From: Asterochloris sp. CNOR1
Lineage: Eukaryota > Chlorophyta > Trebouxiophyceae > Trebouxiales > Trebouxiaceae
Length of the DNA stretch: 64,000 nt
Assembly: GCA_963969365.1 (NCBI GenBank)
Contig: OZ017753.1
Location: forward strand, 2,108,001 to 2,172,000
Direction of reading: 5' to 3'
Shown here: in pieces, positions 2,167 to 57,100 of the stretch
Position numbering within the stretch: the stretch's first letter is position 1
Layout of the letters: each line of letters starts with the position of its first letter
The notes under the pieces: model-generated
Databases searched by the model: none
Told to the model about the DNA's origin: nothing
The model's input: only the letters and a program-made list of their open reading frames with translations
Program-made: the position numbers and the translations under genes

Positions 2167-5100
2167 ATGGTGCACAGAATTGCCCTGATTAGGTGAGGCC
2201 TGGCAGACCCCATCACATCAAACGCATCTGCCATCCTGACTGCCAAGGTTGATGCACCGCAATTGCCCTGGCTTAGAACACGCAAGGTCATTCCTCCTGC
2301 AGGCATGGTGAGAGTGTATGGAACCTGGAGAACTTATTCACAGGTGGGGCCATGCTCATGATCGATGTTCTTGGATGCTGTCGGCGCATGGGATTGCATT
2401 GAATCCCTGTCCAGCAACAAATCAGCAATGATCCCGACGTGTGCTGTGACCTCAGGCTGGACAGATGTGGACCTCTCAGACACAGGGCGGACTGAGGCGC
2501 GGTGGGCAGGCAAGCTGCTGCGCACAGAGGGCTTCAAGGTGAGTCATGGTCCACTGCATTTAGAGGGATGCTTGATGCCTTGCGACCTGGTTCCACGCTT
2601 TGGCTGCTTCTGGCGGTGCAGCCATCTCATGCACTGCCTCCACCCACAGGCTTCACCGAGGGGCAGTGGGCTGACCAGCCGCTGCACACAGAGGGCTTGA
2701 ATGTGTGTTAGGCATACAGGTTCAATGTCTTTGTCCACCGCCTTGATGCTGTCAGGGCTTTCAAACACATCAGCAGGCCCACACGTCCTGCAAAGCCAGC
2801 ATCTGGTCATGGTGAGCACATCATCTGGTATGTCGCATGTCGGCCCTGATGCTGGCAGGGCCAAGTTTCAGGACAACCTGCAGGCCCAGGTCACAAGAGG
2901 CAAAGAACAGGGGCAGCCTCTTCCAGAGATTGTTAGTACACTTCCTGCTGAGCTGCGGTCTGCCTTGCCTGCTGCAGTTTGACCAGGCGTACACGTCTGT
3001 GCTGAAGCGGGCCATCAACACGCTGCAAGTGGTGCTGGAGAACTCGGACCAACTGTGGATCCCCGTGGAGAAGACCTGGAGGCTCAATGAGCGCCACTAT
3101 GGAGACCTGCAGGTGGGGCAGACACCTGTCTCATAGTTTCTGGCTGCTGTGAGGCAGGAGGTCTCATTGCATCTGGGGGCCTGTGGATTCAACCGCCAGG
3201 CAGCTGGTGGCGCCCCATTCCCATTTAGAGAGCAAGCAATGCTGGGGTGCCTGCTGACTTGCCACTTCACCTGCACGTCTGCAGGGGAAGAACAAGGCTG
3301 AGACGGCCAAGAAGTACGGTGATGAGCAGGTGCACATCTGGCGCCGGTCCTACGACATACCTCCAGCACGTGAGCTGCTGCCCTGCAGTTTTGCGGCGCG
3401 TTAACTCGAGTGTTTGGGGCAGCCTCATCTGCACCACTGCGTGCAGCAACTGCAGGGGCTGGGGCATCTGACCCAGGGGGTCCAATGCTTAGCTTGGGAC
3501 GATGCCTCTGCTCTCACGATCACTCAGCTGGAGCTGGTGTGTCTGCTGCCTGATGGAGGGCTGGTCGCTTCCAAACCATCCTCCCCTGGCACAACAACCA
3601 TGCCTGCACCTGCACCCCTGACCAAGGACTGTAAAAGCTTGTGCTCCAGCTCCCTGGCCGGCTCCATGCGCCTGCCTCCGGCAGCAGCAGGGCCACAACC
3701 AGCAAGTCGAGGCTTGAACTCATCTGCTTTTGACTCTTGCAACGTCACCAGCGCCTCGTGCCTGCAGCCCTGACGAAGGACGATGAGCGGTGGCCTGGCA
3801 AGGACAGGCGGTATGCACACCTGGACCCCAGCCAGATCCCCCTGCAGGAGTCCCTGAAGGAGACTGTGGAGCGCTTCCTGCCTGTGAGTGCACGCCTGTG
3901 CAGTGGCTGAAGGGGAGTGGGCGCACTCTGCAGGGAGGACCCAGGCTATGCATAGAGCGCACGGCCTAGCACGCCTTTTCAGGTACATGGGCGGCCTGTG
4001 TGCACAGTGGTGGTGGTGGTATGCAGCCCTTCTGCACTGCGGCGCGGCCGCACACAGGGAAACCAGCGCTGCAAAGAGCGCTGCACCAGGTGGATCACGG
4101 CCCCTGTGTGCAAATGGGCGGTGGCTGTGATACAGTTCACTGCCCAAGAGCATGTGCTTAGATGGCGAGGGGGCTGTGCACTGCTCAGTAGAGCTGAGAC
4201 GCAGGATTGCACCCATCAGGCTGCTGAGTATGTAGGTCACCGATGTGCCAGCAGCACTTGGGACAGCCTGAAGCAGGCACCAGGTATGGCTGGCCACAGC
4301 AGCCCAAGACGGCGCTGCTGCAGGGCTCGTTTTGCACCCGGCAAACACTGTGCAGGAGGACCCTTGCTCGTGTGCACTCGGCAGACTGGTGTCCCCTCTG
4401 CTGCCTGCAGTACTGGCATGAGACAATTGCCCCCGTGGTCAAGAGCGGCAAGAATGTCATTATTGCCGCCCACGGCAACAGCTTGCGAGCCCTGGTGAGC
4501 ACAGCACACTCTCAGCACTCTTCAGACACACCCTGCGTAACGCACGGCTGCTTGTCATGTTGTGGAATTTCAGGCAGAACCCACTGCTGCACGCTGCAAC
4601 AGCTTCTGCGCCTGTTGAGCAAAAACGCAAGACAACAGAGCTGGGAGGCCCCTGATTCAGACAGACAAGGCCTACCGCAAACACACTTCCTGCTGAAAGT
4701 TGCAGTACTGCAAGCACTCATTTGCTCAACAACCCCACTGCCTAGGGAAGCATCGAGTCTACCTACTTTGTATCGCGTCAGACTTGCCGAACATTGCTTT
4801 GCACCGGACTCCAGCTGAAGCAGACCTCTGCCTGCCGCAGTGCTTGGCGTCCCCTTTGACGGGCAGTCTCCTGTGACACCTCCCTGGCACCACTCCCCTG
4901 CTCACAGAGCCTGCTGTGTGCCCGCCGTGATGCGTCAAGCGTTCAGGTTCCCTTCAGCATACAGCCAGGCCGCAACCGCGAGAAGTCAGCACCAAGCTCC
5001 AATTTAACACAACAAGCATCTGGCCTCGGCTGACCCTGCTCCTGTTGGCCCCCTGCAGGTGAAGTACCTTGACAACATCTCTGACCAGGACATCCCCAGC

Positions 5101-6418: not shown

Positions 6419-7731
6419 GTGGTGGCCACTGCAGACCTCATCTTTGTGTTTGGCAGCGCGGCAGAGATCCGAGACCACCTGAAGAACGTGAAGGACAGCA
6501 TCAAGGACCGCCTGATTGTGCCTGTCACACAGGAAGGGCAAATCGACACATTCCAGGTGAACAGCGACATTGGTGACCCTGGGGCCTTCCTTGTGAGCAT
6601 TGTGGGGCCTGTCGCGGACGGGGAGAAGCCCGCAGGTTGCCATGTGCTCCACTGCCGTGCTGAAGCTGTCCAATTCCCAGGTGGGCACAAGGGACTGGCT
6701 TAGGGCCGCTTGTGTTTTCAACGTGGAGAGCATGCAGGTTACTGCTCTGCTGCCCTGCTTCAGCTGCGGTGGTGGTGCAGCCTCCTTGAAGACTAGCTGT
6801 GGAGGCAAGCAGCCCAGGGTGGTTTTGCTCACCGGCGCATTGGACCAGAGCATCCTGTCGGACATTCATGTGTGTTCAACGGAAAGTGAGCAGCAATACT
6901 CCTGCAAGAGGCTGTTATGGCCTCAGCCCACATTGTGTGCTGATTGGGTGAATGCACCTGACCGCAGGTAGCTGCTGGCAGCCCTGGGCCACGACCTTGC
7001 TTGGGCCACTCTGCACTCCATCAGCATCACCTGCTGGGGTCTTAGCCACTGTCGTGCTGGCATTGTCTTGAGCAGCACACGTGCTTTGGCAAGTGAGCAC
7101 CTTCATGCAGCCAAGGGCTCCTCTGCAGCTATTGGGCTGGTCCTGTCAAATTTTCTCCCTCTGTTGACAGAACTTGATGGAACACACTACTGCAGCAAGC
7201 TGCTGGCGGCTCAGCCAAGATCGTGCTGGCGCTCTCTGAGAAGGACCTGGAGCCTCCCCACCCCACCCTGGATGTCCACGAGATTGGAGCGCCAGTCAAG
7301 CTGATCAAGGGGGCCAGCGCCAGTGACAAGGACGTCGAGATTGTAAAAACCCTGATCGAGGTAGGTCTGACAGGGACCGCCATTGTGTGATGTTGGCTTC
7401 AGGGGCAGGTCTCAGGGTGGGGGGGTTGATGTTACCAAGAGTGCCACCCATCTTCATCAGACAGGAGTGGGTCTGACATCTTGGTGGACGTCCTCTTAAG
7501 GACCCTGCCAGGAATGCCATCAAGCCCCGCTTGCTGTACGGGGCCTGCAGCTTGGATTGCTGCAGGTTGAGCTAATGGTGGCGCATGGGACTTGAGAGGT
7601 GCTGCTGATTGGCGGCACCATGTGCAGGCTGCTGGCTACCCAGTGCCCCATGAGTAATGACATCCCATGCAGGCTGCTGGCTACCCGGTGCCTGAACAGG
7701 AGTCGCGCCAGGCAGCAACTGCAGGCGGCTG
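6419..7731 (+). CDS. Unrecognised multi-exon protein, N-terminus unresolved
   Basis: I do not recognise this protein. An exon opens after a strong acceptor (TGCCTGCAG, ends 6418). It reads VVATADLIFVFGSAAEIRDH, a basic helix (LKNVKDSIKDRL), then IVPVTQEGQIDTF and GAFLVSIVGPVADGEK, to about 6635. The frame used between 6635 and the donor near 6681 is uncertain. A second exon, about 7200-7361, reads GGSAKIVLALSEKDLE then DVHEIGAPVKLIKG, ending KTLIE at a GTAGGT donor. The last exon, 7675-7731, reads AAGYPVPEQESRQAATAGG and stops. A TGTAA motif follows at 7851. The N-terminus may lie among smaller exons in 5690-6400, where I could not settle one. The peptide at 5483-5684, assigned here to dPGM, could instead belong to this gene. 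Confidence 0.45.
7620..7697 (+). repeat. Duplicated acceptor and exon start
   Basis: The acceptor and start of the last exon of the orphan gene (GCAGGCTGCTGGCTACCC near 7671) occurs a second time about 47 bp upstream near 7624, followed by AGTGCC instead of GGTGCC. Both copies have a usable AG. Confidence 0.7.
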
Positions 7732-7850
7732 ATACCCTTCGCGTGCAGTTTCTTCTGTGCTCGTGACATTGACCAGTCTGAAAACAACCTGTTTGGTCAT
7801 GAGACCTGCTGCCAGCCCCATTGGGCTATGTGTGAGCATGCAGCAACAAA

Positions 7851-7855
7851 TGTAA
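7851..7855 (+). terminator. Probable polyadenylation signal TGTAA
   Basis: TGTAA lies 120 nt past the stop codon at 7731. UGUAA is the established nuclear polyadenylation signal of chlorophytes such as Chlamydomonas. It also sits between two convergent genes, as expected. Confidence 0.5.
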
Positions 7856-7949
7856 AGAAAGCTGGAGTGTTCAAAATTGTACATTCTGCGCTTTGGGCTG
7901 CAACTCTCATGAGGGTGACCATGGGCAAGATGGCTGCTCACAGTACCTG

Positions 7950-10900
7950 TCAGAAGTCTACATCTCTCTGGGGATCATTCTTGTCTATCTCAGCAAATTG
8001 TGGAGGGTTTTCTAGCGCTTCTATTATCGTTCCTAGTCTTTCCCTGGTCAGGCCCTTCCCTGTCACAGAGACCTCTTGGACGTCCATGCCTCTACGCACT
8101 ACCAGGGTGAAGCGGCCCTCAGCAGCAACTGACAGGAAGCTGGCATTATTGAAAGTGCTGCTGTCCAGAACCTCTGAGGCATCCTTGACCAGGTAGATCT
8201 GCACAGCAGGCACGCAGAGCCCGTCAGCACATGTATGCGGATCGGGATTCAGCACAGCAACTAGGCACGAGCTGGGCACTGCCTGTCAGGATCAGGGCTG
8301 CCACCCGTGGCTGTGCGCTGGCTGTTCAGATAGACCATGGCAGGAATGGATGAGACATGAGGGTCATCCAGAAGCAAGCAAGCACCCGCAGAACTGGCCA
8401 GCTCAGTGTGTCATACTTGGACCCACCACCAGTGTGTCATGATACTCCCTGGAGATCTTGTGGCGCCCAAATCTGATCTCTGTGATCTCAGGGTGAGCAC
8501 TGAGGCTATCAAACACCTCCTTGGCAGCAGGAAAAGCTGCCTGCAACACAGGGAAGCTTTTGTGACAACATCTCTGTGGGTGACTGCCGTCTCGCCAGAG
8601 CATGCATGCTGTGAAAAACAGGCCTCGTGGTGCCCTCATGGTGCCAAGTATGCCCCTGTCGGATCAAGTATGTGCTTCATAGGCCTGCCTGAGCAGTATC
8701 TGGTCCGCCTGATCTTTGCCTTTAATCAGACATGGGCCCACGATAGGGATTGCTTGTGTGTGGTCTGGCAGATTGGCACTTTGTTGAGCAAACCCAACCA
8801 GCATTAGGCAGCCCAGCAGGCAACCTACCCCTGATCTGCTGGAGCTCCCCTGACGCAGAGACCTGCCCCTCTTGTGCACGCTCAGCGATGCATCCCTACT
8901 CACGTGCTGCAGCTCCTCAGACCCTGGCCCCTCCCCTTCCAGAAAGTCGACGCTGCCAGTGCTGAGAGGTCTGCTCATCAGTTCATCAACCTTGCTGGCG
9001 TCAAACAACTCATCCACTTTGTTGGTCTCCTGCACCTTCATGGACAGCGCCACATGGCCCCGCTCAGGCTGCACAGCTACAATCATGGCGTTCAGCGTGT
9101 CGCCGACCTGCAGGGCAGGGGCTGGCAGTCATCAGCACAAGGTGGGGAATGCAAGTCAAGATCCACCCTGTGGTTGAATCCTGGCCACCAGCCTTGTTCC
9201 CAATGACACCCAATGACCCACAATCTGAGCAGAGCGCACCCTCCTGTCCTGGCGTCCCCCATGCCACCCCAGGCAAGCTCTGATCTGTGCATGAACAGTG
9301 GCTGCTGGCAGGCCTTGCTACGTACAGCGCGAGTTGAGAAGCAGGTGCAGCCTCTCCTGGGCCACCTCTTCAGTGACCAGGCAAGTCTGGTCATGTCAAG
9401 TAGCAAGGCACAGCCTCACCTTGACCACCCTCCTGGCGTCCCCCACAAAGCCCCAGGCGAGCTCAGACCTATGTATGAACCCCCTGACCGTCTCTACCTC
9501 CCCCGTTCTCAACTCCACATCGAACGCGGCGAAGGCCGCCAGCTCATACACATTGAGCACAGTGGCCTCCACCAGCGCAAAGCGGGACTCCTGCAGGCGC
9601 TGAGGGATGAGCAGGGGATGGCCGGAGTGACTGCCATCATTGCCTCAAGCAGCTTGCACATTCTGAAGCAAAACTGGTCCAAAACAGCAAGCCATGGTGC
9701 CCCAACATCAAAAACGATCATCAGCCAGTACATGGGAAGGGCAGCTGCATGCTCTGCCTTACGCAGCTGGAGGCCGTACAGAGGCAATGCGTCTGCCCCA
9801 GGCAAGCACCCTGACAAGACCATTACCTGCAGGATTTCTGCAGCCTCTGCAGTGATGACCTGGTAGGGTAAGTGAGGCTGCTTCATGCCGGCTGCCATGA
9901 GCTTCCTGTCTGCCAGCCGCTGGCTCATGATGATGGCTGGCCTGGGCTCCCAGAAAATCTGCAGGTGCAGCACATGATGATTCGTGAGTGTTTGTGGGTG
10001 CAGACGGGCCTCTGGGGTCGCCAGTGCGCTGCAGATGCAGGCCAGTGGTGGTAAGTGGGCGCCCATGGGGGTGCACAAGCCTGCATGCTCCCTGATAAGC
10101 TGCAGGTGCAGCATTTGTTGATGCTTACAGATCTCCTGGGTGTACAGAAGCCTGCAGGTGCGACAGGCATTAATACGTGAGGCCTCATGCCTGTGCACAC
10201 GCCTCTTGCTCCTCATGCAGCGCATATTTGATATGGGTGTGCAAAGCCTCCGTGCACCCTGATGAGCTGCGATTCAAGGCGCAGCAGATGAAGGCGCAGA
10301 ACCTCCACTGATGTAATGAGCTTGGGGGTCCCTGAACACTTGCAGCTGCAGCAGGCCTCAAAATGAACTGACTCCATTCATGTAGACCCATGTGCAACAG
10401 TCACAGAAGGGGGGTGGTTGTCAGTGCAGCACCTTGCTGCGTGTGCTGCTTGTCCTGGTGGCTGTCAACATTTAGCGTGGGCAGCAGCGCAGGCTAAGCT
10501 TTGCAGCACTGCAGACTGCGTCACACTAGTGAAGGCATGAGCTGGTGTAGTATGATCATGCCAGCGCCTGAAGGTAACGGTGCAATATGAAACCTGAGAT
10601 GAGGTCTGCTGATAGCTCTGCCCATGCACAACTTACAATAGAGACATGGCTACGCAGCCTCACCCGCAGCTGGCAACTGGATGGGCTGTTCCTGCGACTC
10701 ACAGCATGCAGGGGCACTCTCAGCTGTTGGCTCGCCTGCTACTTTGGCAACCACTTCACAGTGCACTCTCAGCACATCCGAAGGCTTGCATGGCTGGCCC
10801 TTCTGCATGCAGCCCTTGGGACTTCAGCATTACAGCACCTCTCAGCAGGCAAGCAACTCACCTGAGACACGCAGCACGTCAGGGCCACATCTTTTAGGGC

Positions 10901-13900: not shown

Positions 13901-14930
13901 TGGCAGCTGAGGCTGAGGCTCAGTGGCCGGCGCAGCCTGCTCTGCCCCGGGGGCGCCGGGTTGCAGGGCAGGAACAGGTCCCTCAGCAGGCCGCGGCTGC
14001 TTCCCCTCAGGGGCAGAGGGTCGCCATGCCGGCTTGGCAGCCAGCACTGGCAGAGACTCTTGCATAGGAAACGCGTTGTCCAGCACAGGTGGCTCAGGGG
14101 CAGCTGGCACCTGTGGCTCCGCCAGCTCTGCAGCCTTGGGCTGTGCCTGTGCTGGCACAGCTTGCGGCTCACCAGATGCGTCTGGCGGTGCGGGCGCTTC
14201 TGAGACTGGTGTTGGCTCCAGCTGTTCTGGCTTTGCAACCAGCATGGGCTCTGGCGCAGCAGGTGCAGCAGCAGGCTGGGCTGGCGCCTCTGGGGCAGGC
14301 GGCGGCTGTGGCCTGGCAGGCCTTGCAGCCAGAGTCGGCAGAGGTCTGGCCTCACGTGCAGCTGGCTGTGGGGGCAGCTGCGGGGCAGGCGGGGGCTGCG
14401 GCCGGGCAGGCTTTGCAGCCAGCTTTGGCAGCGGCTCGACCCTGGCAGGCTTGGCTGGCGCCGCTGCCTCTGAACGGATGTAGCTCCTGAAGCCACCAGG
14501 GGGCTCCAGCAGCGACGGCATGTCACTCTTCATTGCTTGAGGCCGGGGCGGTGCTGTCGCCACTGGCTTCGGCGGCGGGGGCTTGACCTGTGGCGGTGCC
14601 TCCTGAACGGCTGGCTGTGTAGGGTCTGTGTCTGATAGCAGGCGAGCCAGGATGCCAAAGCCACCACGAGAGGGACCTGCATCCAGAGGGAACATGTGAT
14701 CATGATGCATAACAGGCACACAGTGACTGCAAACAGTTTCACCACCAGGGCACAGCTGCTCACCAGATGGTCTGGCAGCGCGACGAGGCCTTTCAGCTTG
14801 ACTAGGGGCAACCCCCGCCGTGTCACCACCAGAGTCTTCCACCTGATCCCAGTTGGCCTCATCTGCCTTGCGCACCTGCACCGCAGTGGCAGCCCAGCTG
14901 TCAAAGTTGATCCAGAACAGCTCCTATGGC
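7950..14930 (-). CDS. Multi-S1-domain RNA-binding protein with long Pro/Ala-rich linker, probably plastid
   Basis: Minus-strand gene. A short first part (FWINFDSWAATAVQVRK, acceptor near 14930) is followed by a huge exon, 12610-14676, encoding about 690 residues. These are mostly Pro, Ala, Gln and Glu, with imperfect repeats built on LAAKPARPQPPPAP and LLPKPVRP. Then come a basic link (GRKKTIMELAEVW), a piece of S1-like fold ending in GFLPAKHLSP (11535-11615), exon 10862-10995 (FKIALKDVALTC), exon about 9832-9961 and exon about 9421-9600 (ETVRGFIHRSELAWGFVGD). Exon 8904-9107 (GDTLNAMIVAVQPERGHVAL) completes a clear S1 OB-fold. The tail exons end at stop 7950-7952. Most junctions are in phase; the join across 11535-11862 is not resolved. 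The start is not located: the reading frame is closed just upstream of 14925, so the first exon must lie further up, overlapping the neighbour. Plastid location is inferred from S1 proteins of plants. Confidence 0.65.
9237..9480 (-). repeat. Exon-end pseudo-copy in S1-gene intron
   Basis: The 3' end of the S1 exon (about 9421-9480; protein FIHRSELAWGFVGDAR) is repeated about 190 bp away at 9237-9296, where the same frame reads FMHRSELAWGGMGDAR. The copy lies within the intron downstream of that exon. Confidence 0.8.
10079..10300 (-). repeat. Degenerate exon-like copies in S1-gene intron
   Basis: Two segments (about 10079-10130 and 10236-10290) share a pattern on the minus strand: a Leu-rich CAGCTCATCAGGG-type core followed by GCACxxAGGCTTTGCACACCCAT-like sequence. 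Both lie upstream of the exon starting near 9961, whose acceptor region (TGCTGCACCTGCAG) also recurs near 10110. Confidence 0.5.
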
Positions 14931-14999
14931 CCTGCATGGTACAACAATACAAACCCTAATTGCTACACAAGACCCCGGTTTGGCTGAGGATGCCCGAGC

Positions 15000-22200: not shown

Positions 22201-25200
22201 AATCATGTTACTAAGCTGTTACCTGCAGTGCGAGGCATGTTGCAATGGCACTGTCAAAGCGATTTGAAACAGCCAATTAGGGCCCCGTCCCTGCACGCTT
22301 CACAGGCTGGCAAGTTATTTTGCACCTACATTGCACCACACCATGGCACATGACCATATGAATATCACTTGCCAGCTGACAGCTTGAGAGTCAAGTTGCA
22401 CTGGAATGCTGCACTGGAATGTCTGAAGTTCACAAGTGCAGCAGTGTATTATGAACAGCTCTTGGCATGAGGGCGTGAGTTGCGGGCTTGGTGCAGCCTC
22501 AGCTGTGAAGGCCCTGTGTTGCCTGCAGGGGCTTGAAGAGGGGCCAGCCTAAGCTGTTCAAAGGGGGCATCGGCAATGGGGCCCTGGGCTCCTTCCGCAA
22601 CAGCAACCTGCGCCTGACGTCTGGGGCTGATGCTGCATTCAAGGCAAGCTGCGGCATTGTCATGTGGCTGCCTGGCCTCTGACGCAGACATATTGTACCT
22701 GTGGCAAGCTGCAACAGCCCTTGCATGGCATATCCCACAGGCTGCTGCCTGGTAGCAGGCCTGGTGGTCTGCTACCGCAGATCAGTGGTGAAAGAGAGAC
22801 ACTGCACCAAGGTCTCCTGCTGGCCTCCCTGCAGGGCACTGGCACCATCCAGCCATGGGTGCCGGGCCTGATCTCACTGAAGGATGGTGATGACAGCGCC
22901 AAGCAGCAGAAAAATGCTGAAATCACCCCAGTGCAGGTAAGGCCCAGCCGGGCCACTTAAGGAGCAGCCTGTGCCCTGCAGGGCTGCTCCTTGTGTTGGC
23001 CCTAAAGCAAGGCATCTCTTGTCAGTTCCACAGAACGTAAAAGAAACAAAGAAGAATGATAAGATCACCATCGTGCATGTGGAGTTACTGAAACTGCCAG
23101 CTGTAGTTAGTGCGCTGCAGCGCCGCTCCTTGCACCCCCATGGCATTGCGCAGGGCGCACTGCGCGCCGCAGAGCACGGCTTGACCTGGCAGACGTCTGT
23201 CATTGTCCAACACTGACCCTGGACAGCACTGCTAAGCAGCAAAGCGTCCAACACTGATCACCACCTGCACAGTTGGACAGGCAGCACTGAGGTCACGTGG
23301 ACTAACCCGCAGGTGGACACCTCGGTCAACTTTGACCAGGTTGGCGGGCTGGACCACTACCTGAAGCAGCTAAATGAGATGGTATTCCTGCCCTTGGTAT
23401 ACCCCGAGCTGTTCGAGTCCTTCCACCTCACGCCGCCTCGGGGGGTGCTCTTCCATGGGCCGCCTGGCACAGGGAAGACTCTGGTGGCCCGAGCGCTGGC
23501 AGCAACCGCGAGCAAGGCTGGCAGAAAGGTGAGCTGAGGAGGACTGCTCATGCTGATGTGAGCTGACGGGCAGCATCACGAACCCAGACCATCACCGCGT
23601 CCAGCTTGTTGACTGCCGCACCCCGCAGACCTGCCACCACAGGCAGGGTCACAGCAGCATGCATGGCTGCAGGGCCACCCTGCTGCTCTGCTGCTGGGTG
23701 GTCCGTCCACCCAGCACTGTGTAACAGCAGCCTTGCATGATCAAGGGGCAGCTGGTGCGTGAAGGGGGTGCAGCCCCCTGCCTGCCTGCTGCTGTGAGGG
23801 CAGATGTATTGAGTGCAGGTTTCCTTTTTCATGCGGAAGGGGGCGGACATTCTATCCAAGTGGGTGGGCGAGGCCGAGCGCCAGCTGAGGCTGCTGTTTG
23901 AGGAAGCTCAGAAGGCCCAGCCCGCCATCATCTTCTTTGATGAAATTGATGGCCTGTGCCCAGTAAGCAGGGCCACTCATGGAACAAAGATGCGTTTGCT
24001 GTGGCTGATTGATGGGATCCGCTGCCATGCCCATGGTGGGGACTGATGGCCTGCCCCCCATGAGTCGGGTTCTGCTCCACCCTCAGGCGCTGTGTGCGTT
24101 GAGGCTGCCCAGTCTGCTGAACGCATGGCTGCAGCGGAGCAGGTTGGTGCCTCACCCATGGGGAAGCGCAGAGGGTGCACAGGTGCCAGACTGCCCAATG
24201 CTGAAGTTCTGTCACTGGCGCCTTCCATCTCTCCCTCCTCCCTGCTTGGGTGGCTACCTTGTCCTCTGAGGTGCACATACCGGGACGGTTGATGCTTAGT
24301 GCTGCAGCTCTGCAGTTTTGGCACACCCAGGTCCATCTGGTCCTTCAGCCTGCTGTGCCTCTGTGTGTGCAGGCACGCAATAGCCGGCAGGACCAGATCC
24401 ACAACAGTATTGTGTCCACACTGCTGGCGCTGATGGACGGGCTGGACTCGCGGGGGCAGGTGGTCATCATTGGAGCCACCAACAGGATCGACTCCCTGGA
24501 CAGCGCTCTGCGGCGGCCTGGCAGGTCCGTGACAGTTGGCTGCAGGTTCTTGATGCCTCATTGCAGAGCTATCAGCGAGCAAAGCGCTCTCAGATGCTGC
24601 ACAGATACTGTGCAACAGCCTGACAGGTAGCTGCGGTTGCTGCTGGTGCATCTGCCCGCAGCCTTGGGATGCAGCTCGACGTCCTGCTGTCTGGACCCCC
24701 GCTTGCAGCCACAGAGTCCCTCAACTGTGCACTGCCGCTGCCTGGCAGGTCGTTGCCCCTCATGGTCAGGGCCACTGTATCTGCATCTGCTGCTTCTTTC
24801 AAACGCAGTTGTAATGCGCCCCCAGACCATTCATGGTGCAGCCAGGACTCTTTCTTCTTGAACAGCTGCAAGTTCAGCCAAGCTTGCAGCCCCCCAAAGT
24901 CAGCAGCTTACGCCGCCGCTGCCTGAGCAAGAGTGCTTGCCCTCCAGCGTGACAGAGCCAGCTGCTGCAAGCAGGAGCATGGGCATGATCAACACAGTCA
25001 AGCTGCAGCTGGTCTTTGCATGACCGCTCTGCTCTCGAGATGCAGGTTTGACCGCGAGCTAGTGTTCCCCCTGCCCAGCGTGGCAGCTCGCTCCTCGATC
25101 CTGGGCATTCACACCACCAAGTGGCGTGAGCCCCCCAGCAAGAAGCTGCGGCAGGACCTGGCTAACCTGTGCGTGGGCTACTGCGGGGCAGACCTCAAGG

Positions 25201-33355: not shown

Positions 33356-33359
33356 ATGT

Positions 33360-43057: not shown

Positions 43058-43105
43058 CTGCAAGTCTGAACCTGTACCACTGCCGCCTGTCAGTATAAAA
43101 GATGG

Positions 43106-46200: not shown

Positions 46201-49200
46201 ATGCGCAGCGCACAATCTTCACTGCCGTCAGGGCCTCGCCTGAACCCATTGCTGCTCTACACCTTAAAGTCGTATTTGACTGAGCTGACCCAGCAGCCCA
46301 TCAGGGGATGAAAACAGCACATAGCATGAGGGTCTCACCTGCTCCCCATTGCTGCGCTGCACCTCCAGCATGAGCTGCTCAGCGGCTTTTTTCTTCTCCA
46401 GCGCAGCAGCCTGCTCATCTGCCTTGAGCCTCTCTATCTCGCGTGTCATCTGGTCCCGCTCCTGCAGAAATGGCTGGGATCTCAGCATGCGGTAGGCCGC
46501 AACAGCTGTGCGCCCTTCCCAAATGAGATGCTCTGAGTTGCTGCAAGCAGTTTCTCCCTGCGTTTTGTGCCCAGTGCACAGTCACCCGTTGCCTGCAGGT
46601 TGACATGGGGGCCAGCTGCACATCACAGCTAAGCAGCAAAGTGCCCTCACCTGACCTGCTTTTGACCTGCAGTCAAGCTGGGACCCAACTTGTGCCCAGT
46701 GCAGGGCCCCAGGCTGGCGCAGCTCTCCCCTGCAAACGCCTTGCTGCTGCACAGGTCCACAGCAGACAGCAACCCCGACACTCTCACTGCTTACATGGGG
46801 GTTGGATCAGCTGGTGCAGCTTCTTTTGCCAGAGCAACTCCTGTTTAGAGCAGCCCTGCCAACACCTGCCGGTGAGGTGCTGCAAACTGTCTACCCCAGT
46901 CAGTGCTGGTCAATAAGCCGATGCAGCTCTTTCCTGCTTGATTCAGCACTTTGAGGACCTCTTGGAGTAGCTGTGAAGGCTCCCTCATGCTGCAGCCATA
47001 CCCGCTGGAGTCAGCACACAATGAAGGTAACTTACCAGCTGGCGCAGCTCCTCCTGCTTGATGCGTTCACGTTCACGCTCAGCCAGCTGCTCGTCTAGGA
47101 TTTCTGCGCCGCGGCGGCGGTCTGCTGCGCGCTGGCGCTCACGCTGCTCATAGGCCTGCAGGAAAGGGAGATGGGTTGGGCAGACGGGGTGCTCGCCTTG
47201 GCAGAACGTGAGCGCTGCAGTGGGCATTGCTGTGGCTTTGGTGCTTGTGCTGCTTGCAGGCCTGCAGGCTAAGAGCTGCAGTTCTTGCTTTGGGGTGGGA
47301 CTTACTTTCTGGCAGTGCACTGCAAAATGAAACAAGAAGGTGGCTCTCAGGGCTGCCGGCAGGACAATGTGGCATTCTGCAAAGGGCAACAGGGCTAAGC
47401 TCTTCACAGACACAGGCAGATCTGGAGGGATGTGATGCAGCTTGTCAAAGCGTGTGCTGCTGTGCGCCACAGCACTGCTCGACCACCTGGCAGGTCCAGG
47501 GCCAACAAGACGCCTTGAGCATTATGCTTTACCCCAGCACACTATAGCTGGCAACAGCAGGGGGCCAAGGGGACATGTATGCATGCACCAAGCACAACTC
47601 TTTATAACCTGGGCCACTCCAGTGCACTAATAGCATTGACATCCAGGAGCCCCCCCCCAGCAGCCTCTCCCAACCAGTTACACGTCCAGGAAGCATCCTG
47701 TGATACCCTTACAGAGCATGTCCCTGGCCTGCCAGTCCCCTGCCAAGCAGCATTTGCCAGGTGCCAGCTGAGGAGGCCCATGACGGCGCCAGCTGCCGAC
47801 ACATTTACCTCCAGCGCGCACATGCGGTCATCATCCATTGCCACACCCAGGACATGCAGCAAGGTTCGAGCCCAGACACTACCCTGTGTTGCCTGTAGCA
47901 TGCACCCGGCTTGCCAGGTCCCCAGCCACCCCAGCACATGCCAAGTGCCGGCTCAGGAGGCGGTCGGCACATGCCGGGGTGGCTAGGTCTGAGGCTCATG
48001 CCCACAGGCGCTAGCTGCCCAGAGAGTCACAGCCCACAGCAGAAGGTGGCAGCTGTCCACGCCCTCACCTCCAGCGCGCGGATGCGATCAATCTCCATTG
48101 CCACATCCAGGGCGCGCTCCTCCGCCTCTTCCTCCTCCAGCATGTGCTTCTTCTCCTCGATCTGGGCATCCCTGTGCGCCAGCACACAACGTCAGCACAG
48201 TACGCAACATGCAGGCATGCGCCCTTGCAATTTCATGATGCAGACTGGGGGGGCCACATTCGGACCCCAACTACAGTCACCCAAGGCCTGTTATGGTTGC
48301 ACTGAGATTGCTTGGCGGCTCAGCATGTGCCTCTCTGGGGGGGAGGCTGGGCTCACGCAGCTGCTGATCAACCTGGCCAATGCAGTGCTGAACACACCTC
48401 CTGGACCACCAGATGGACGCTGTGTGCCGAATTGACCAAGATGTGCCTGATCACCTGACGGCCAAGCACCGATGTGCACACCTTGTTTCTCAGGTTTGCC
48501 TGATCAACCCTGCCCACCTGATGATCATGCGCTCGCTATGCCTAACACAAGACGCTGTCTCAGGTGTGCCTGGCCGCCCCTGTTCACCTGCTGGTCACGC
48601 CTATGCCATGCTAAGTACCTCTCGTTCTGAGAGATGCCTTGCTACCCCTGCCCACTGTTTTGTCAAGCGTTTCATGTACAGCTCTACCTAGTACTCTCGG
48701 GTGCCCAGCCACCACTATCCACCGAACAATCACGCAGTGGCTATGCACAACACCAATTTAGTTTCTCTGGTTTGCCTGGCTGATGTCACCATGCCTGCCC
48801 ACCTGATAGTCACACATTTGCTGTATAGCACCATCTGGTTCATGTGCTTGACCTCATCCCGTTGCTCGTCCAGCAGGCCCTCGGCCCTGTTGCGCGTGTG
48901 CTGGTTAGCACGTGCCTGCAGCCGTTCCGTCTCCGTCTGCACACCCTTGTTGCGGGAGTCCTCCTCCATCTGCAGTTGTGAGCATGTCTGGTCAGTTACT
49001 GTCAGTGGCGGAGGGCATGTCCGTCTAGACACCCTGCTTGCCAATCCTCCTCCACCTGCAGTTGCCAAAGGGTCTGTCAGGCTTTAGCAGTGGCTGAGAG
49101 TTTGCCTGGCAAATTTGGCGCACCAGTCTGCACACCCTTCTTGCAGGATGGCACCATGATCTGCAATTTATAGAGCGCCTGGTCAGGCCAGTACAAGTAG

Positions 49201-50477
49201 CCAAACAACCACGACAAGCTCATGGATTGATAGGGCTCTGTCCAGGAGGATCACCAGCACAGCAAGGGCTGCCGCACCTTGAGCATGTGCTCCTTATGTG
49301 CCTTGCACACTGCCTGCAGTCCCAGACCAGGGTGCCTGTCTGCGCAGCGAGGGCTGCCTCACCTTGAGCATGTGTTCCTTGCGCGCCTTGGACACTGCCT
49401 GCTGCTCCTCGATTCGCCTCTCGGCGTCTTTGCGCAGCTGAGCGATCTCCTCCGCGGTGAGCACATCAGCAGGCTTCCGCATCCGCTGCAGGTCTTCCCT
49501 GCAGGGCAGGCAACAGTTGGGCATGTGCTTGGCTCTGAGGTGCAGGTAGGCCCATGCAAGGCAGGCAGCAGCAGGCCTGGTGTTTGTGGCTGCTGCACAG
49601 GGCAGGCAGCAGTAGGGCTTAGGGTTCTTCTTCTTGATGTGCAGGTTCTTGCACGCATGCCTAGCACCAAAACAAGCTTCTGCTTGTGCTGGCTATGCAC
49701 AGACGTCTGAGTGTGCAGTGTGCATCAGCCCATGTCGTACTCATGATGCGTATAGGGTCTAACTTGCAGCAGTCCAGCTGCTGCACTGTGCCTACACGAC
49801 CTGCAGGTCAGGAGGCAGCTGCGGGACTGGTGCTTGTCTTTGCTGTGCTCTACTGCAGGGCAAGCAGCAGCAGGACTGCTGCTTGCAATGGTGCTTGTGC
49901 TATACGGGCAGCAATGAAACACTGCACCTGCTTTGCTTATTTGATGCAATACAGCTGTGGGTTTCATCCCTTTGCCTGCTGTCGAAACCATGCAGGCATG
50001 AGGCTCCGAACATGTGCGGAGCTTCCCTTAAGCCTCAGCAACACGCAGTCCTGAGGCAGCAGCGCGGGCCTGACACTCCATGTGTCTCGACTGCCAAGTC
50101 CGCTTGCTGCTGTACAAGCAACTGTGTTGTGCAGCATTGAGGCCTCCAGCTGTACCTGTGCAGAAGCACCACCTCTGCGGCAGGGGGCTTTGGCCCCTTG
50201 GCACCCCCTCGCTTGGGGCTCACAGAGGACGCCTTTCTGTTGGGAGTGGCCAGTGTCTTGGCACTGCCTGACTTCACGGGGGACTTGCTGCCAAACAAGG
50301 ATTCATCCACATGGCTTTCCTTCCCCACTGTGCGGTATCTGCAGAAGCAGTGCGACGTCAGAGGGAGCAGAGGGAGGTTATTGTGGCAGTGGCATTTCCC
50401 TGTGAGTGCACTCACCCTGAACGTTTGGAGGAGACACTTCCCTGGCTGCCAGGGGAACTCAGCCGGGAGCCTGGCAT
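43253..50477 (-). CDS. CFAP45: Cilia and flagella associated protein 45 (CFAP45), doublet microtubule inner protein
   Basis: CFAP45 lines the lumen of axonemal A-tubules. Exons (minus order): 50416-50477, 50156-50338, 49363-49498, 48803-48969, 48069-48171, 47036-47155, 46339-46461, 45691-45780, 45220-45341, 44923-45037, 44448-44543, 43544-43699 and 43253-43348. The start MPGSRLSSPGSQGSV is followed by YRTVGKESHVDESLFGSKSP, matching the YRT...SEVDESLFG signature of animal CFAP45. Then come VLTAEEIAQLRKDAERR, the block ARANQHTRNRAEGLL, and the junction CVTIR/DAQIEEKKHML (animal CHAIRDAQILEK). A long series of charged coiled-coil exons follows, and the end AIRQRKLHEMEVQGVPAKYR matches the animal EIKRKKLEELRATGLPEKY tail. 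Phases fit throughout. One region of the family, between residues about 80 and 110, was not found in 49499-50155; it may be lost or lie in an unread small exon. Confidence 0.9.
47807..48115 (-). repeat. Exon-end pseudo-copy in CFAP45 intron
   Basis: The 3' end of exon 48069-48171 (protein DVAMEIDRIRALE) is repeated 260 bp away at 47807-47856, where the same frame reads GVAMDDDRMCALE. The true donor is GTGAGG; the copy has GTAAAT. Confidence 0.85.
48420..48840 (-). repeat. Tandem array (period about 70 bp) spanning an exon end in CFAP45
   Basis: About six degenerate copies, with GTTTGCCTG-like starts at about 48424, 48494, 48564, 48633, 48711 and 48770. The last copy spans the end of exon 48803-48969 and its donor. 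Copy 48494 keeps TGCCCACCTGATxxTCA, the sense-strand exon end plus GTGGGC donor. Confidence 0.85.
48933..49165 (-). repeat. Acceptor-side copies of the same CFAP45 exon
   Basis: The start of exon 48803-48969 (plus-strand CCGTCTGCACACCC at 48933, ending CATCTGCAG at the acceptor) recurs at 49021 (CCGTCTAGACACCC ... CACCTGCAG) and 49123 (CCAGTCTGCACACCC ... GATCTGCA), spacings 88 and 102 bp. With the preceding array, this exon is flanked on both sides. Confidence 0.85.
49265..49405 (-). repeat. Exon-end copy after CFAP45 exon 3
   Basis: ACCTTGAGCATGTGTTCCTT at 49361 (end of exon 49363-49498 on the minus strand) recurs as ACCTTGAGCATGTGCTCCTT at 49276, 85 bp away. The match extends through CACTGCCTGC. 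Donor GTGAGG becomes GTGCGG in the copy. Confidence 0.9.
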
Positions 50478-51136: not shown

Positions 51137-54100
51137 TTAGTACTCGCTGGGACTGTCTGGGCTGACTTTGATTCTGTGGTATGCCTGGTTGGCAGTTGGA
51201 CGTTCTGCTGGAGGCCTCTCGGTGCAGTCCTCAATCAGATCCCTAATTTCTGCAGGGCACTCCTCTGGGACCTGCACTGGGAGGGCTAATGGTGTGGACG
51301 AAGAGTGTTTGCACCTGGGGTGGCAGTGACCCTACAAGCTGCCAGCAAGACTGGAGCGCTCACAACCCCCTCTTGGAGCTGAGCTTGTAGCCCTCCGTGA
51401 CAGACCAGGACAGCCAGCAGCTGACACCAGGATAGTTCAGAGCGCTGAGCTTCTCAGGCAGCAATCAAAGGCGCAAAACGCGTCTCAACATCTCGTTGAG
51501 ATCAGCACACGCATGCTCACCCTGAGGGGTCGCAGCTGGCCCCTTAGGGGCACCTCACTGCAGGCAAGAAGGGCACAGTCAGCCCTGAGGAGCCTTGACA
51601 TGTTGAGCAATGCTGGCAGGCAAGTCTCCATGCACAGCAGCAGCAGCAGGCTGCTGTCCTGACACTGGTGTTGTGCGCCTTTCCCGCACCTCAAGGAGCG
51701 GAGCCTTGCCAGAGACAGATTTGAATTAGGGAGTCAGCAAGTTTTGTTGCACACACAGGCATGCCTCTCACGTTGTCACCAGCTCCCACAGCAGCACCCC
51801 AAAGCTGTACATGTCTGCTGACTCCCTGACGTTGGTGCCCAGAAGAAACTCGGGGGCAGCGTAGGCCATGGTGCCAATGGGCCTGGTCCTACTGGCCGAC
51901 ACACCCGTGTTGTCGAGGACCCGTGCCAAGCCGCAGTCCGCAATCTTGGCCAGATTGCGGCTGCCATTCAGCAGCACATTCCGAGACTTGATGTCGCCTG
52001 CAAGCAGGCAAAAGCTGCATTGAGGCCCCATCGAAAGTCAGCAAGTATGTGGCCCAGCAACACAGGACACTCTTGTGTTGCCCAAGGCGGGCGTAGCTTC
52101 AGACCAATTGCGTCGCTATCAAACACTATTCTGGCAGACCTCCCCACACTGCTTAGCTTGACTGGCAGATGCTTACCATGCATGACCCTCTGGCTGTGCA
52201 GATAGGCAAGGCCCCGAGCAATGTCCATGGCAATCCTCTTGCCCTTGAGCCACCACCTCAGCTCTGCCGAATGTTCAGTCAGGGCGTTGCGCAGGTCACC
52301 GCCCTGCAGCCAGCACGCCACATGCTTTCTGCTGTCGCAGGAGGGCTGCACTATTGTCGCAGGTTGTGACGGGCTTATCTGAGCAGGACAATGATGCCGC
52401 AGCTGCAGGTCATGCTGCCTCTGGAAGAGCAGGGTGCTGAGCCAGAGCATGAGCTAACAATATTAGGGCCTGCCCAGCAGACGCATTGCACCAGCACAGG
52501 AACCAACCTCCATGTACTCCAAAACCAGCATTGGTGTACCCCCCATGTCGGTGCTGTTCTGTTTCCAGCAGCAGGCTCCATAAAACTGTACAATGTTGCC
52601 GTGGAAGCTCAGATTCATCATGATGCTGGTCTCCTGCAGGGCAGCTCAAGCAGCATTGCTTCAGTTGCGTCTCACAGCCACGCATTGGGAGGAACGTGCC
52701 CGTCCATATGCGTCGCAGCAGGTGGACCTTTGGGGCGCACACAGATCCAGCGCAGGCCATGCTCCACAGCTTGCTTTACAGGTATGCAGCAACACAGCTC
52801 AGGCAGGTCGCCTGACAGACCTAAAATGAGCCAGCAAGCTCACCCTCTTGAAGGTGTCCAACTGGGTCACATCCCCAGAAGATGAGGCAAACACGATCTT
52901 GACGGCCACATCCTGGACGCCCTGGCGCACACATTTGTACACCTGCATCACACATGTTGTCCTGCAAGCACAGACTCCGTACAGAGACAGTCATGCTTCC
53001 GTAAGTCTCACAACAGGGAGGGTGTCGCATCTGGCAGCATGCCGCAGCCCAAGGACCTGAAGCATGAGGACATGTCCAGGCTGGCTTCAGGCTGACGCAG
53101 CAAAAAGACCCAAAGTGAAAGCGCTGCCCTAGACGTGCTGGCAAACAGGTGTTTGTGGGCGGACTGTAAACCCAGACCCCTCATGGTGAAGTTTTGTGCG
53201 AGGGCCGGTGAGCTACACGCTGTAGCTTGGCAGCAGAACGCCAGCCTGTCCCTTGCATGCAGTCTCGCTGCCCCCTGGCCGCTGCAGCGCAGCCTGATGG
53301 GCCTGTGAGCTGCAAACACTGGTGGCCTGATGGGCAGTGAGCAGCCTGCCAAGTGGCCCGCAGGCGGTCTCACCGCGCCATAACCGCCGTGGCCCAGTCT
53401 GATGGGCCCACGCTCATCGCGGCAGACCTCAATCTCACGCGGGTCAATGGACCAGGGCTCCAAGCGCTGGGTGGATGCATGAGTCACCAGGTGCTTCTGA
53501 GAAACACGAGCTGTTGTGGACAAATGGGAGGAGTCTGAAGAAGCACCTGCATCACGAAGGTCAGGGCTGTTGAGAATTGTAACCAGGCCGTAGACTCTTC
53601 AAGAGTACTGGACAGCAAGCCCCACGCCAATGAGAAGGCGGAGCCAGGCAGCATGCATGCAGAGCCAGATGGCAGGCAGTAGGTCCTGAGCAAGCACTTG
53701 TTATCATCTTAAACAGCAAACAGGACACCAGATTCAGCTGAGAGCTAAGGTGACTCCGCAGACTAACCTTCATGTGACTGGCTGCTGTCTGCGCCCGTGG
53801 TGGCTCCAGAAGTTTCCCAGACCATGTCCCTGTTGTCGGTCTTGAATGAGGTGTCAGACTGTGTCAGCACAAATGCCAGGTCCTGCAATGAGCATCAGAC
53901 AAGCACTGCAGCCCTGGACCAGCAGGTGAACACAAGTGCTCAGTGGCTTCCTTCAGACCTCACATGATGCCACTTGTGGCCTGAGCTGACTGGCTTGCAT
54001 GCTCAAGGCCTACGCAAGCCCTCTTGGAGGCTGCCTTATGTCACAGGTGCAGCGGCACCGCTTGCATCTTGGAGGTTGCATCAGCTCCCAGTTGCGAGGC

Positions 54101-57100
54101 TGTGGGCAGCCCTGCTCACCTGTAGCTTCATGTTGTGCACACCACTGGATGGTGGATCTGAGTCCGAATCCTTGTCTGATTGCGTGGCAGGAGCGCTCGG
54201 ATTTTGAGCCAGCTTTGGGTCAGGGGCCTGGTCAGAAGCCTGGTCTGAATCGATGGATTTTGCTACAGCAAGCTCAGCTGTGCGCCTCTGCCATTGCCTG
54301 TGCCGCCGCCACCGCAAAATAAGGTAGGCTGCAGTCATGATGAGAATTATCAGGCGGGGTGATCAGCTGTGTTCCTGGAGCTTGTAAACCGCCCTGAGCA
54401 GGGCTGGAACGGTCTGCAAACATCCTCTTTGAGCATGCCAGCTAAGCAGCATGCAACTCTGCACTCAAGCACAGCAACAGCAACAACAACAGTGGCGCCA
54501 GAAGGGGTGGTTTGAAGTAGGGGCTGGGAAGCTCTCCTCAAGTCGGAGTCCCCCTCAGCCGCCAAGCAACATTCAGCGCTGTGCAGGGGTGCTGTGACTT
54601 GAGGGCACAGCACCTTACCAATGATTGCTATAGGCACAGAGATGGCCACAAGGCCACCAATGACGATGCCGGCAATCGCACCCCCTCCCAGACCGGCACT
54701 CCTGCAGACAGGACAACGCATTGAGCTCTCAGGCACCAGAGGCAGGAGCTGCAAGCAAAGGTACAGCACGGCAGGATCTGCTCTCAGGCGGCAAGTTCAG
54801 CTGCAGGAGCTACTCATGCACCAAGGCTGACTTATGAATGCATAGCAACTGTGCAGGCAAATTTGCGCTGCAGCAAAAGCAGTCGGTGGCACTTACTTGA
54901 CTGTTGCCAGTACAGATCTTTCAGCTGCATATGTGGCATACTGCAGGGGCACACAGGGAGGTGAGGCAGGGCGAAAGAGGCAGAAGGCAGCTGACCTCTT
55001 AGACACCCAGAGCAAGGCTTTGCACTAATCCTCTGCTGAGATCTGTCAACGGAACAGCAGGTCAAGATACCCAGCATGTTTTGGGACCTTCACATCTGAG
55101 CGAAGGCGGCAGCAACGAGGTGCTTGGAGCTCGCTGAGGGTGGCCATCTGACAGCTATGTGATGTTGCAACAGTCAGCCCTTCAAACGCAGCTCAGTATG
55201 CTGCCTGTGCAGTCAGCCGCAAGGGCAGGCAGGAGAGGCAGGTCTGGGAGCCTGCCTTCCATGAGCTCGAGTGAACCTCATTGATAGTGCCGACCATGCC
55301 CACCTGATCGATGACTGTGTAGTTGGGCACATTGTCTTGGAAGGATGTCAGGTTGATTGAAGTGACAGGGACGCCAGCCGACACCAGCTTGGAGAGAAGC
55401 AGCGGGAGCTCATTGGGCGCAGCTGCAGTGATGGTGAAGTCCAGTGTCTGCAGACAAGTGCATCGCAGGTCACAAGCATGCCCGCAGACAGCGGCATGCA
55501 AGTCAGCTGCGGCCACTGCTTAGGTGCAACAACAATGATGGTGACTTCCAGCATCTGCAGCCAAGGACCATGTGGGTCACCAGAACACCGTTAGGCAGCA
55601 CCTGAGAGGGGCCGGTGGCAACTCTTTGGGTACGGAGTCTGTCAAGGTCTACGATGGAAGGCGCACTTGTGCTGCACGCTGTACCTATCTGGTGCCAGAG
55701 CCAGATGCCAAGCTGCAGACAGCAAAAGGGCGTGTGCAGGTTGCTGCACACCTCACGCTGACAGGCTGATCTCAGCAGCACTTCTGCCCCATGCCGATGC
55801 AGCAAAGCCGACGCAGCAAACTGGGCAGTGCGAACTTGGAGCCTTGCTCTGTGCCCCCCCACAAGACAGCTAACCGCATCCCATAGATAGGTCCAGCTGC
55901 CATGGGCTGCTGTCACATTGCTCAGGCAGCTAGGATGCGGTCCTGACCGCACCTGAGCCATGTCAACTGACTTGGTGTCGTGCTGTGCCACCATTGTAAC
56001 TGTCACATTGCCAGCGCCAGCAGGGAAGGCTGCAGCCTGCTCAGTCACTCCTGTGATGTTGAGGTAGGCTGCCCCTCCTTGAGCCGTGATGAGGGTGCTG
56101 AGCTCCAGCAGCAAGGCATCCTGCTTGCCAATGCCAAAAGGCAGCAGTCCTGGGCCAGTGTGCTGAATCTGCACCAGCCAGCATCACAGTCAGCAGCCTG
56201 ACCAGTGCATGCAGAAGATTGGCAGGCAGCAGCCTTGAGCTGCCACGCAGCATCAGTTCAATCTTTCTGGTACTTACACTTTCAACAGCTGCAGCAATAG
56301 GAGCAGCTGTCAGCTTCAACCTGCCTGCCTACCTCAATGGAGAACAAGGTTGCCTGGAAAGGTGGGTGATTCAGCTGGCTGACAATAGGGAAGGACTCTG
56401 GTGCCGGCACCTGACCGAGGGTGACCACTTGCACATCGAACCCAAAGCTGGCCATCTGGGCTGAGAAGACCTGATGGTAAGTTGCTTCTGAGCCGCCTGC
56501 AGGTCATGCAGCTCAGAGCTGAGCACAGCAAAGGTCAGGAGGCGGCTGACTGTTGGGAGCTGGCGAGCACCAGCATGCCAAGTCCCTGAGCTGCCTGGCA
56601 AGGGGCGCCAGCTGCTGGCCCGGTGCAGGCGTGCAAGAGGCGCAGTGCGTCGGGTGCACGCAGGGCGTGGCGTCTGCCCACTTGCCTGCCCAGTGCAAAG
56701 AGCCAGCAGGCCTGCTGCACGAAGCGACAGGTACAGTGCGAGGAGAGAGCGGCCCAACGTGGGGTGTCTGTTGCAAACCCCAGGTGCTTGGCACAGGGGG
56801 CATGCACCGTACTGCCTGGCCCCATCCTGCCAGGCTTTCCTCCACAGTCAAGTCCTCACCAAGGTCGGGGTACGCTGATCCATAGCTGAAGCGTGCGGCT
56901 GCCACCACATCAACCCCGTCATAGTTCACTTCCCCTTGCGTGACTGCCTGGCCCTCCGGCGACAGAGCTGCCAAGTCTGGGATTGGCAGCGGCCCTGGGG
57001 CCCCCACAGGGCCCCACAGCAGTGTCGACGGCGTTGTGAAGTCCGGCTCGGGAGCCATGCTGGAACTCAGGCTGCCGCTGGGTGCCGACAGTAGCTTCCG

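What the first reader, a model, noticed from the sequence alone, without database searches (positions are those of the whole stretch)
2494..55560. Recurrent tandem duplication of exon edges with their splice sites
In at least eight genes (dPGM, orphan 7731, S1 protein, ATAD2-like, HORMA, CFAP45, receptor kinase and, more weakly, others), an intron contains one or more decayed copies of the neighbouring exon edge. The copies span the splice junction and often still carry a usable AG or GT. Copies lie downstream of donors and upstream of acceptors, at 47-260 bp spacing, and some still translate to a similar peptide. This is not a dispersed element: each family is private to its intron. It suggests that introns here grow by local tandem duplication across exon boundaries, or that splice-site-bearing minisatellites are tolerated. 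Such arrays would create decoy splice sites and a supply of alternative exon ends.
Basis: seen in the sequence. Interest (0 to 1): 0.8.

Follow-up and report, generated by a model that had tools for sequence, protein, structure and literature searches.

The report
Introns copying their own exon edges
In this probable green-alga genome many introns hold decayed tandem copies of the end of the neighbouring exon, splice site included, most likely because short stretches of DNA are often duplicated in place and such copies do little harm inside an intron.

Summary
In the window 22 of 120 splice junctions match their own intron strongly; the same edges against introns of other contigs gave 0 of 360. 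Of 228 confident introns, 31 carry a junction-spanning copy; swapped or shuffled introns gave 0-1 such pairs against 33. Five of 32 held-out introns do too. The cause is general: 220 close direct repeats within 500 bp in 264 kb, against 2 in an equal band of distant offsets. Four families searched are private to their intron.

Best explanation: frequent small tandem duplications fall anywhere; those crossing one junction survive because the exon-proximal splice site still gives the original protein, so the intron grows. Simulations without targeting give junction shares of .20-.34 against .32-.33 observed, so a mild preference for junctions is not excluded. Copies are more frequent in long introns. 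I found no sign that copies are kept as alternative splice sites and no convincing newly born intron. The process is known; its density across splice junctions, and a role in intron growth, may be new.

The parts
603..884 (+). Intron of PDI-like gene with a copy of its acceptor edge 126 bp upstream of the acceptor at 885
   Evidence: score 18, 0 of 200 foreign draws
2481..2708 (+). dPGM: exon end plus donor (junction 2538/2539) and decayed copy 164 bp downstream, 77% over 64 bp
   Evidence: single place in the genome
7031..7237 (+). Gene after dPGM: copy of the acceptor edge (acceptor 7200) 169 bp upstream
7623..7692 (+). Young acceptor copy: 25 bp at 96%, offset 45, both copies readable as AAGYPVP
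9247..9480 (-). S1-domain gene: donor-side exon edge copied 184 bp into the intron
9946..10122 (-). S1-domain gene: acceptor edge copied 141 bp upstream in the intron
24490..24751 (+). ATAD2-like gene: donor edge copy, offset 224
28657..28804 (+). ATAD2-like gene: acceptor edge copy, offset 95, among further repeats from about 28459
28925..29426 (+). ATAD2-like gene: donor edge (28971) with several decayed copies at offsets 119, 213, 332-338 and 445
   Evidence: private to this intron
30181..30299 (+). ATAD2-like gene: acceptor edge (30277) tandem copy, offset 72, gap -1
30402..30590 (+). ATAD2-like gene: donor edge (30439) in a 96-bp tandem array, also seen by Tandem Repeats Finder
32099..32240 (+). 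Exon end plus donor copied at offset 101, 88% over 41 bp (intron not in the confident set)
47600..48111 (-). CFAP45-like gene: donor edge (48069) with a copy at offset 260; a third, weaker copy near 47620-47650 and homology over the rest of the unit were seen by eye only
   Evidence: private to this intron
49257..49402 (-). CFAP45-like gene: donor edge (49363) and copy at offset 85, 87% over 61 bp, GGTG kept; my gene finder called the copy an exon
   Evidence: private
53255..53408 (-). Receptor kinase: donor edge (53374) copy, offset 105
55362..55599 (-). Receptor kinase gene: acceptor edge (55447) copy over 131 bp, offset 107, TGCAGA kept

Best explanation
The copies are the visible part of a genome-wide process of small tandem duplication (offsets mostly 25-225 bp). 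Shown: an excess of local direct repeats; tandem contiguity in some young pairs and flank homology in many more; partner in the same intron; about 14-16% of introns carrying a junction copy; more copies in longer introns. Inferred: duplications fall without much regard to gene structure and selection filters them. Units inside an intron are neutral. Units crossing one junction are also neutral if the exon-proximal site (first donor or last acceptor) keeps being used, because the spliced message is unchanged. This leaves the exon edge and splice site as a decaying copy inside the intron, downstream of donors and upstream of acceptors. Units inside an exon or across two junctions should mostly be removed. 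Repeated rounds lengthen introns. The likely molecular source (from the literature, not tested here) is fill-in and end joining of staggered breaks, or replication slippage.
For: Local direct repeats (score 18 or more) at 20-499 bp: 220 in 264 kb, against 2 and 2 in two equally large far-offset bands; 7 inverted ones over about twice as many position pairs. 184 of the 220 have offsets under 225 bp. Within exon-intron-exon units of 228 introns: 46 intron-intron, 33 intron-junction, 24 exon-intron and 8 exon-exon pairs. Five shuffles gave no junction pair and one exon-intron pair in all; three intron swaps gave 1, 0 and 0 junction pairs. Hold-out of 32 introns on the same contig: 6 junction, 9 exon-intron, 1 intron-intron pairs, 5 introns with a junction copy; three swaps gave no junction pair. 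Partner in the same intron for 33 of 35 junction copies; the other 2 lie in spurious introns of a proline-rich open frame. Three perfect contiguous tandems of 22, 28 and 40 bp exist, the 28-bp one across an acceptor (offset 31, L011:2195-2253), and an 87% one crosses a donor. Flank homology: 57 of 194 flank tests at p<=0.05, against 9.7 expected. Simulated random tandem duplication plus selection gives intron-intron .49-.57, intron-junction .20-.34, exon-intron .12-.26; observed .45.32.23 of 103 pairs. Pairs per kb rise from 0.52 (introns of 150-250 bp) to 1.81 (500 bp or more). Literature: small tandem duplications are called the commonest short (<100 bp) insertions in the human genome and form at breaks with 3' overhangs (PMC8355091, passages); about 80-90% of short insertions in flies and primates are attributed to simple or complex tandem duplication (PMC2374710, passages).
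Against: The junction share (.32-.33) is inside the first simulations (.28-.34) but above the second, more careful set (.20-.27). Exon-derived copies (junction plus exon-intron) are 57 of 103 in the main set and 72 of 119 with the hold-out, against .43-.51 in the simulations: a modest excess I do not explain. Exon parts are shorter than simulated (median 35 and 90th percentile 57 bp, against 38-45 and 81-98). My gene finder may have called long exon-like copies as exons, as at 49278-49313, which would remove them from the count. If the annotation is merely slid along the sequence, junction pairs are twice expectation (63 against 30.8, 0 of 200). Removal of purely exonic duplications is not clearly seen: exon-exon pairs are 12 against 15.1 expected, and only exon-junction pairs are clearly short (4 against 13.1); at least 7 window pairs lie in one proline-rich open frame. 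Some young copies have unrelated spacers (60 bp at 92% with a 63-bp gap), so not every event is simply tandem, and 50 of 119 pairs show no tandem evidence beyond the match itself. Short introns leave less room for two copies, which inflates the length trend. No RNA, no population data and no second alga were available.
Confidence: 0.78

Rival explanations
1. Duplication is targeted to exon-intron junctions, for example by breaks at co-transcriptional structures near splice sites, so exon edges are hot spots.
For: Junction pairs twice the annotation-slide expectation (63 against 30.8). Exon coverage by repeats is about 7-11% within 40 bp of the junction and about 1-4% at 70-100 bp. Junction share above the second simulation set, exon parts shorter and exon-derived share higher than simulated.
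Against: Random tandem duplication with selection gives junction shares of .28-.34 in the first simulation set. A copy whose partner is a conserved exon stays detectable longer. The gene finder may hide long exon copies. Donors and acceptors are hit alike (17 and 16).
Confidence: 0.15
2. The copies are kept by selection as alternative exon ends or regulatory decoy splice sites.
For: GT or AG intact in 25 of 33 copies against 19.6 expected from flank identity. 14 of 17 donor and 13 of 16 acceptor copies score above the weakest 5% of real sites, a lenient cut-off.
Against: Offsets mod 3 show no preference for whole codons (12, 8, 13). Of 25 intact copies 20 would shift the frame or bring a stop. 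Copies are weaker than real sites (median 5.8 against 9.9 bits for donors, 6.8 against 12.7 for acceptors; equal or stronger in 6 of 33). Comparable sites are common in introns anyway.
Confidence: 0.05
3. The copies are footprints of introns newly born by tandem duplication of an AGGT-bearing exon segment.
For: The mechanism is established elsewhere (review PMC3443670, passages; potato case PMC4974935, passages). One of 257 introns scores above null for donor-to-acceptor similarity.
Against: That one intron lies in low-complexity GCT-rich sequence and may be a false intron. Mean donor-to-acceptor similarity is close to the permuted mean (3.70 against 3.58).
Confidence: 0.03
4. A dispersed element (introner or transposon) or motif coincidence produces the similarity.
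For: Introns share strong consensus ends (CTGCAG|G), so some similarity is expected by chance.
Against: Four searches of the whole genome found only the same locus, apart from the neighbouring exon edge (the tool skips very common words and gives lower bounds). Swapped introns, which keep all shared motifs, give 0-1 junction pairs. 0 of 360 foreign matches.
Confidence: 0.01

Closest known systems
Small tandem duplications from staggered-break fill-in and end joining (PMC8355091) and tandem duplication as the main class of short insertion (PMC2374710; passages read of both)
   Same: Direct, local, tandem copies
   Different: Here they are mostly old, decayed copies at offsets up to a few hundred bases; the repair pathway is unknown; many cross splice junctions
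Potato RdRp intron gained by a tandem duplication crossing an intron-exon boundary (PMC4974935; passages read)
   Same: The duplication carries intron end, acceptor and exon start
   Different: There it created a new intron; here it appears to lengthen an existing intron, in many genes
Tandem genomic duplication model of intron gain, Rogers 1989 (through PMC3443670 and PMC4974935, passages read)
   Same: Tandem duplication supplies extra splice sites
   Different: Units here cross an existing junction; the offset is not the intron length
Intron sliding and novel intron positions in Drosophila (PMC2891723; passages read)
   Same: Nearby duplicate or cryptic splice sites could let a junction move
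   Different: No shift of use is shown here; most intact copies would break the frame
Dual-specific splice sites in tandem-repeat genes, UBC (PMC10809524; passages read)
   Same: Introns with repeated AGGT-like sites in tandem repeats
   Different: No excess of repeats at an offset equal to the intron length here (multiples not tested)

Membership tests
Small tandem duplications | Direct, local, head-to-tail copies | tested here: met
   220 local direct pairs against 2 at far offsets; 7 inverted. 22 of 119 contiguous, 47 of the other 97 with flank homology; 50 of 119 without such evidence
Small tandem duplications | Arise by break fill-in and end joining or replication slippage | not testable with these tools
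   Needs new mutations or repair mutants
Tandem-duplication intron gain (AGGT model) | Repeat offset equals intron length, donor region resembling acceptor region | tested here: not met
   1 of 257 introns above null, in low-complexity sequence; means close
Introner elements or transposons | Similar copies in many introns | tested here: not met
   (four families): only the own locus and its exon edge in 56.4 Mb
Minisatellite | Multi-copy arrays of similar units with length polymorphism | tested here: inconclusive
   Most introns show a single pair, a few several (28925-29426 has four or more copies); Tandem Repeats Finder lists one long-period array at an exon edge, 30402-30585; polymorphism not testable
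Alternative or mutually exclusive exon ends | Copies preserve frame and are used in mRNA | tested here: inconclusive
   Frame test negative: 5 of 25 intact copies keep an open frame; use in mRNA not testable

The most novel reading that the evidence does not exclude
Exon-intron junctions in this alga are hot spots for tandem duplication, and repeated duplication of exon edges is a main force behind long introns in compact green-algal genomes, with a position rule (exon-proximal site wins) keeping splicing accurate next to near-identical decoys.
Probability: 0.15. Interest if true: 0.78.

Novelty: new variant of a known kind. Interest (0 to 1): 0.5.

Why it matters
Chlamydomonas and its relatives have conspicuously long introns for compact genomes; the comparative paper says that the advantage is unknown and that whatever drives intron length is likely ancient (PMC8226300, passages). 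Whether this alga belongs near them is not known. Local tandem duplication tolerated across splice junctions is a simple and testable driver. The copies also form a natural experiment on splicing: two similar splice sites tens to hundreds of bases apart, of which only one gives the correct protein in most cases.

Tried and rejected
Chance or low complexity: rejected by far-offset, shuffle, swap and foreign-intron controls. Dispersed element: rejected for four families. Intron birth by AGGT duplication: one weak candidate, discounted. Selection on frame: none seen. The first extension of repeats used lenient gap costs and drifted into random sequence (its extension ratios discarded, the partner-side count kept); redone with stricter costs. 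The first gene-finder training split exons too finely; retrained on long, well-scored exons only. Three spurious introns in the proline-rich open frame 12299-14923 were dropped before the 228-intron counts (the slide test was made before they were dropped, and the profile used the same undropped list, introns of 120 bp or more only); eight exon-exon pairs in the main set, and three exon-exon and one junction-junction pair in the hold-out, are left out of the three-class fractions. Rfam search of the window: no match at the gathering scores. Literature: 10 searches, of which aimed most closely at splice-junction copies or intron growth; none listed a genome-wide survey of exon-edge copies, but most subscription papers are not held. 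Thomas 2004, Messer and Arndt 2007, Hellsten 2011 and Gao and Lynch 2009 were seen only as cited in the papers read. On rechecking, the second simulation set fits the junction share less well than I first wrote, so I lowered the main explanation from 0.82 to 0.78 and raised junction targeting and the novel case to 0.15.
Full report
Setting. The window is C8:2108001-2172000 of a 56.4-Mb, 21-contig genome. The genome has 31 exon-level matches to the chlorophyll a/b binding family and the window encodes a TPH-domain (CFAP45-like, recalled name) protein, so it is most likely a green alga with flagellar genes; the species is not known to me.

Is the pattern there? Ungapped self-comparison of the window found 53 direct repeat pairs of score 18 or more (match +1, mismatch -1) at offsets 15-499, against 1 and 0 in equally large far-offset bands. 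Over the window and four arbitrarily chosen 50-kb blocks there were 220 at offsets 20-499, against 2 and 2 far and 7 inverted; 184 of 220 offsets were under 225 bp. Offsets 500-980 gave 9 and 1000-1480 gave 6. So local direct duplication pervades the sampled genome, about one detectable pair per 1.2 kb.

Gene structure. A self-trained hidden Markov gene finder gave 231 introns with confident exons on both sides, median about 320 bp in training, with donors CAG|GTGAG and acceptors CTGCAG|G. Predicted window proteins match the expected Pfam families. After dropping three spurious introns, 228 exon-intron-exon units hold 46 intron-intron, 33 intron-junction, 24 exon-intron and 8 exon-exon pairs; 31 introns have a junction-spanning copy and 70 have any pair. 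Dinucleotide shuffles of the intron interior (5) gave no junction pair; swaps with introns next in length (3) gave 1, 0 and 0. A held-out 50 kb on the same contig as the window gave 32 introns, 5 with a junction copy. In the window alone 22 of 120 junction edges match their own intron at score 15 or more, against 0 of 360 foreign comparisons; of 15 junctions picked afterwards, 14 exceed all 200 foreign draws, the exception being HORMA.

What makes it. Pairs are private as far as searched: four searches of the whole genome returned only the same locus, with the neighbouring exon edge as the one extra match in three of them. The copy of a donor edge lies in the intron that follows, and of an acceptor edge in the intron that precedes: 33 of 35, the two others in spurious introns. 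Young pairs include three perfect contiguous tandems of 22, 28 and 40 bp, one across an acceptor, and an 87% tandem across a donor. Of 119 pairs (main set plus hold-out) 22 are contiguous, and 47 of the other 97 have significant homology in at least one flank (57 of 194 flank tests at p<=0.05; 9.7 expected); 50 of 119 show no such evidence. Some young copies sit across an unrelated spacer, so a minority may be templated insertions or have suffered later rearrangement.

Why at exon edges? Sliding the annotation along the sequence, junction pairs are twice expectation (63 against 30.8 at score 18; 0 of 200), exon-junction pairs are short (4 against 13.1), and exon-exon pairs are not clearly depleted (12 against 15.1). 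But a tandem duplication that reaches from exon into intron must carry the junction, and it is the exon-touching duplication that can leave the message intact. Simulating random tandem units, rejecting those inside exons or across both junctions, and letting copies decay gives junction shares of .28-.34 in one set of settings and .20-.27 in a second, more careful one, with exon-intron shares of .12-.26. The main set shows .32 and .23 (n=103), and .33 and .28 with the hold-out (n=119). So the observed junction share lies at the top of, or somewhat above, what the neutral model gives, and exon-derived copies as a whole are in modest excess (.55-.61 observed against .43-.51). Exon parts are also shorter than simulated. 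I attribute part of this to my gene finder calling long exon copies as exons, as it did at 49278-49313, but that is inference, and a mild junction preference is not excluded.

Consequences. GT or AG is intact in 25 of 33 junction copies, 19.6 being expected from flank identity; offsets are spread over the three frames (12, 8, 13). Copies are weaker than real sites, equal or stronger in 6 of 33; of the 25 intact ones 5 would keep an open frame if used. Decoy-quality sites are common in these introns anyway. Nothing points to selection for alternative ends. No convincing intron birth by the AGGT route was found (1 of 257, low complexity). Introns with copies are longer (median 499 against 276 bp); 33 of 53 introns of 500 bp or more carry one against 7 of 73 under 250 bp. 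Pairs per kb are 0.52 in introns of 150-250 bp and 1.81 in those of 500 bp or more, although introns under 150 bp gave 1.33 on only 3 pairs. This is what growth by duplication predicts, with the caveat that short introns have less room to show pairs.

Comparison with what is known. Small tandem duplications are a main class of short insertions in animals and form at staggered breaks (PMC8355091, PMC2374710; passages). Tandem duplication is an accepted route to new introns (PMC3443670, passages), including one potato case whose duplicated unit crosses an intron-exon boundary (PMC4974935, passages). What I did not find in the searches made is a survey showing that a large share of introns carries decayed copies of their own splice junctions, or its use to explain long introns in compact algal genomes; for Chlamydomonas relatives the cause of intron length is left open (PMC8226300, passages). 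I therefore rate it a new variant of a known kind: ordinary in mechanism, apparently unusual in density (no second genome was compared) and in its link to splicing.

Noticed in passing
L011:2195-2253: Perfect 28-bp repeat (offset 31) across a predicted acceptor: two identical TGCAG|GGCTCC sites 31 bp apart, one of which would shift the frame. A ready test of acceptor choice.
   Followed up: partly
whole genome sample: Acceptors are unusually strict: TGC before AG is about 89/89/97%, with C favoured before it (61%) and G as the first exon base (74%); donors favour GTG over GTA.
   Followed up: no
12299-14923 (-): 874-codon proline- and alanine-rich open frame with internal units of about 90 bp repeated; the gene finder cuts spurious introns into it.
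   Followed up: partly
L020:2008-2190: 59 bp of an exon start copied upstream at 92% identity with homology ending 1 bp past the acceptor and an unrelated 63-bp spacer; not a plain tandem duplication.
   Followed up: partly
L010:9749 to L011:43: About 91 bp at an exon start (88% identity) duplicated 204 bp upstream, still coding-like; looks like a prolyl-oligopeptidase-type gene (recalled resemblance).
   Followed up: no
38439-38605: Three copies of CTGCAGGCATGAGCTGCC near a 13-bp predicted exon of the HORMA gene; which acceptor is real is unclear.
   Followed up: partly
29857-29900: Perfect 16-bp tandem repeat (2.8 copies) in an intron of the ATAD2-like gene.
   Followed up: no
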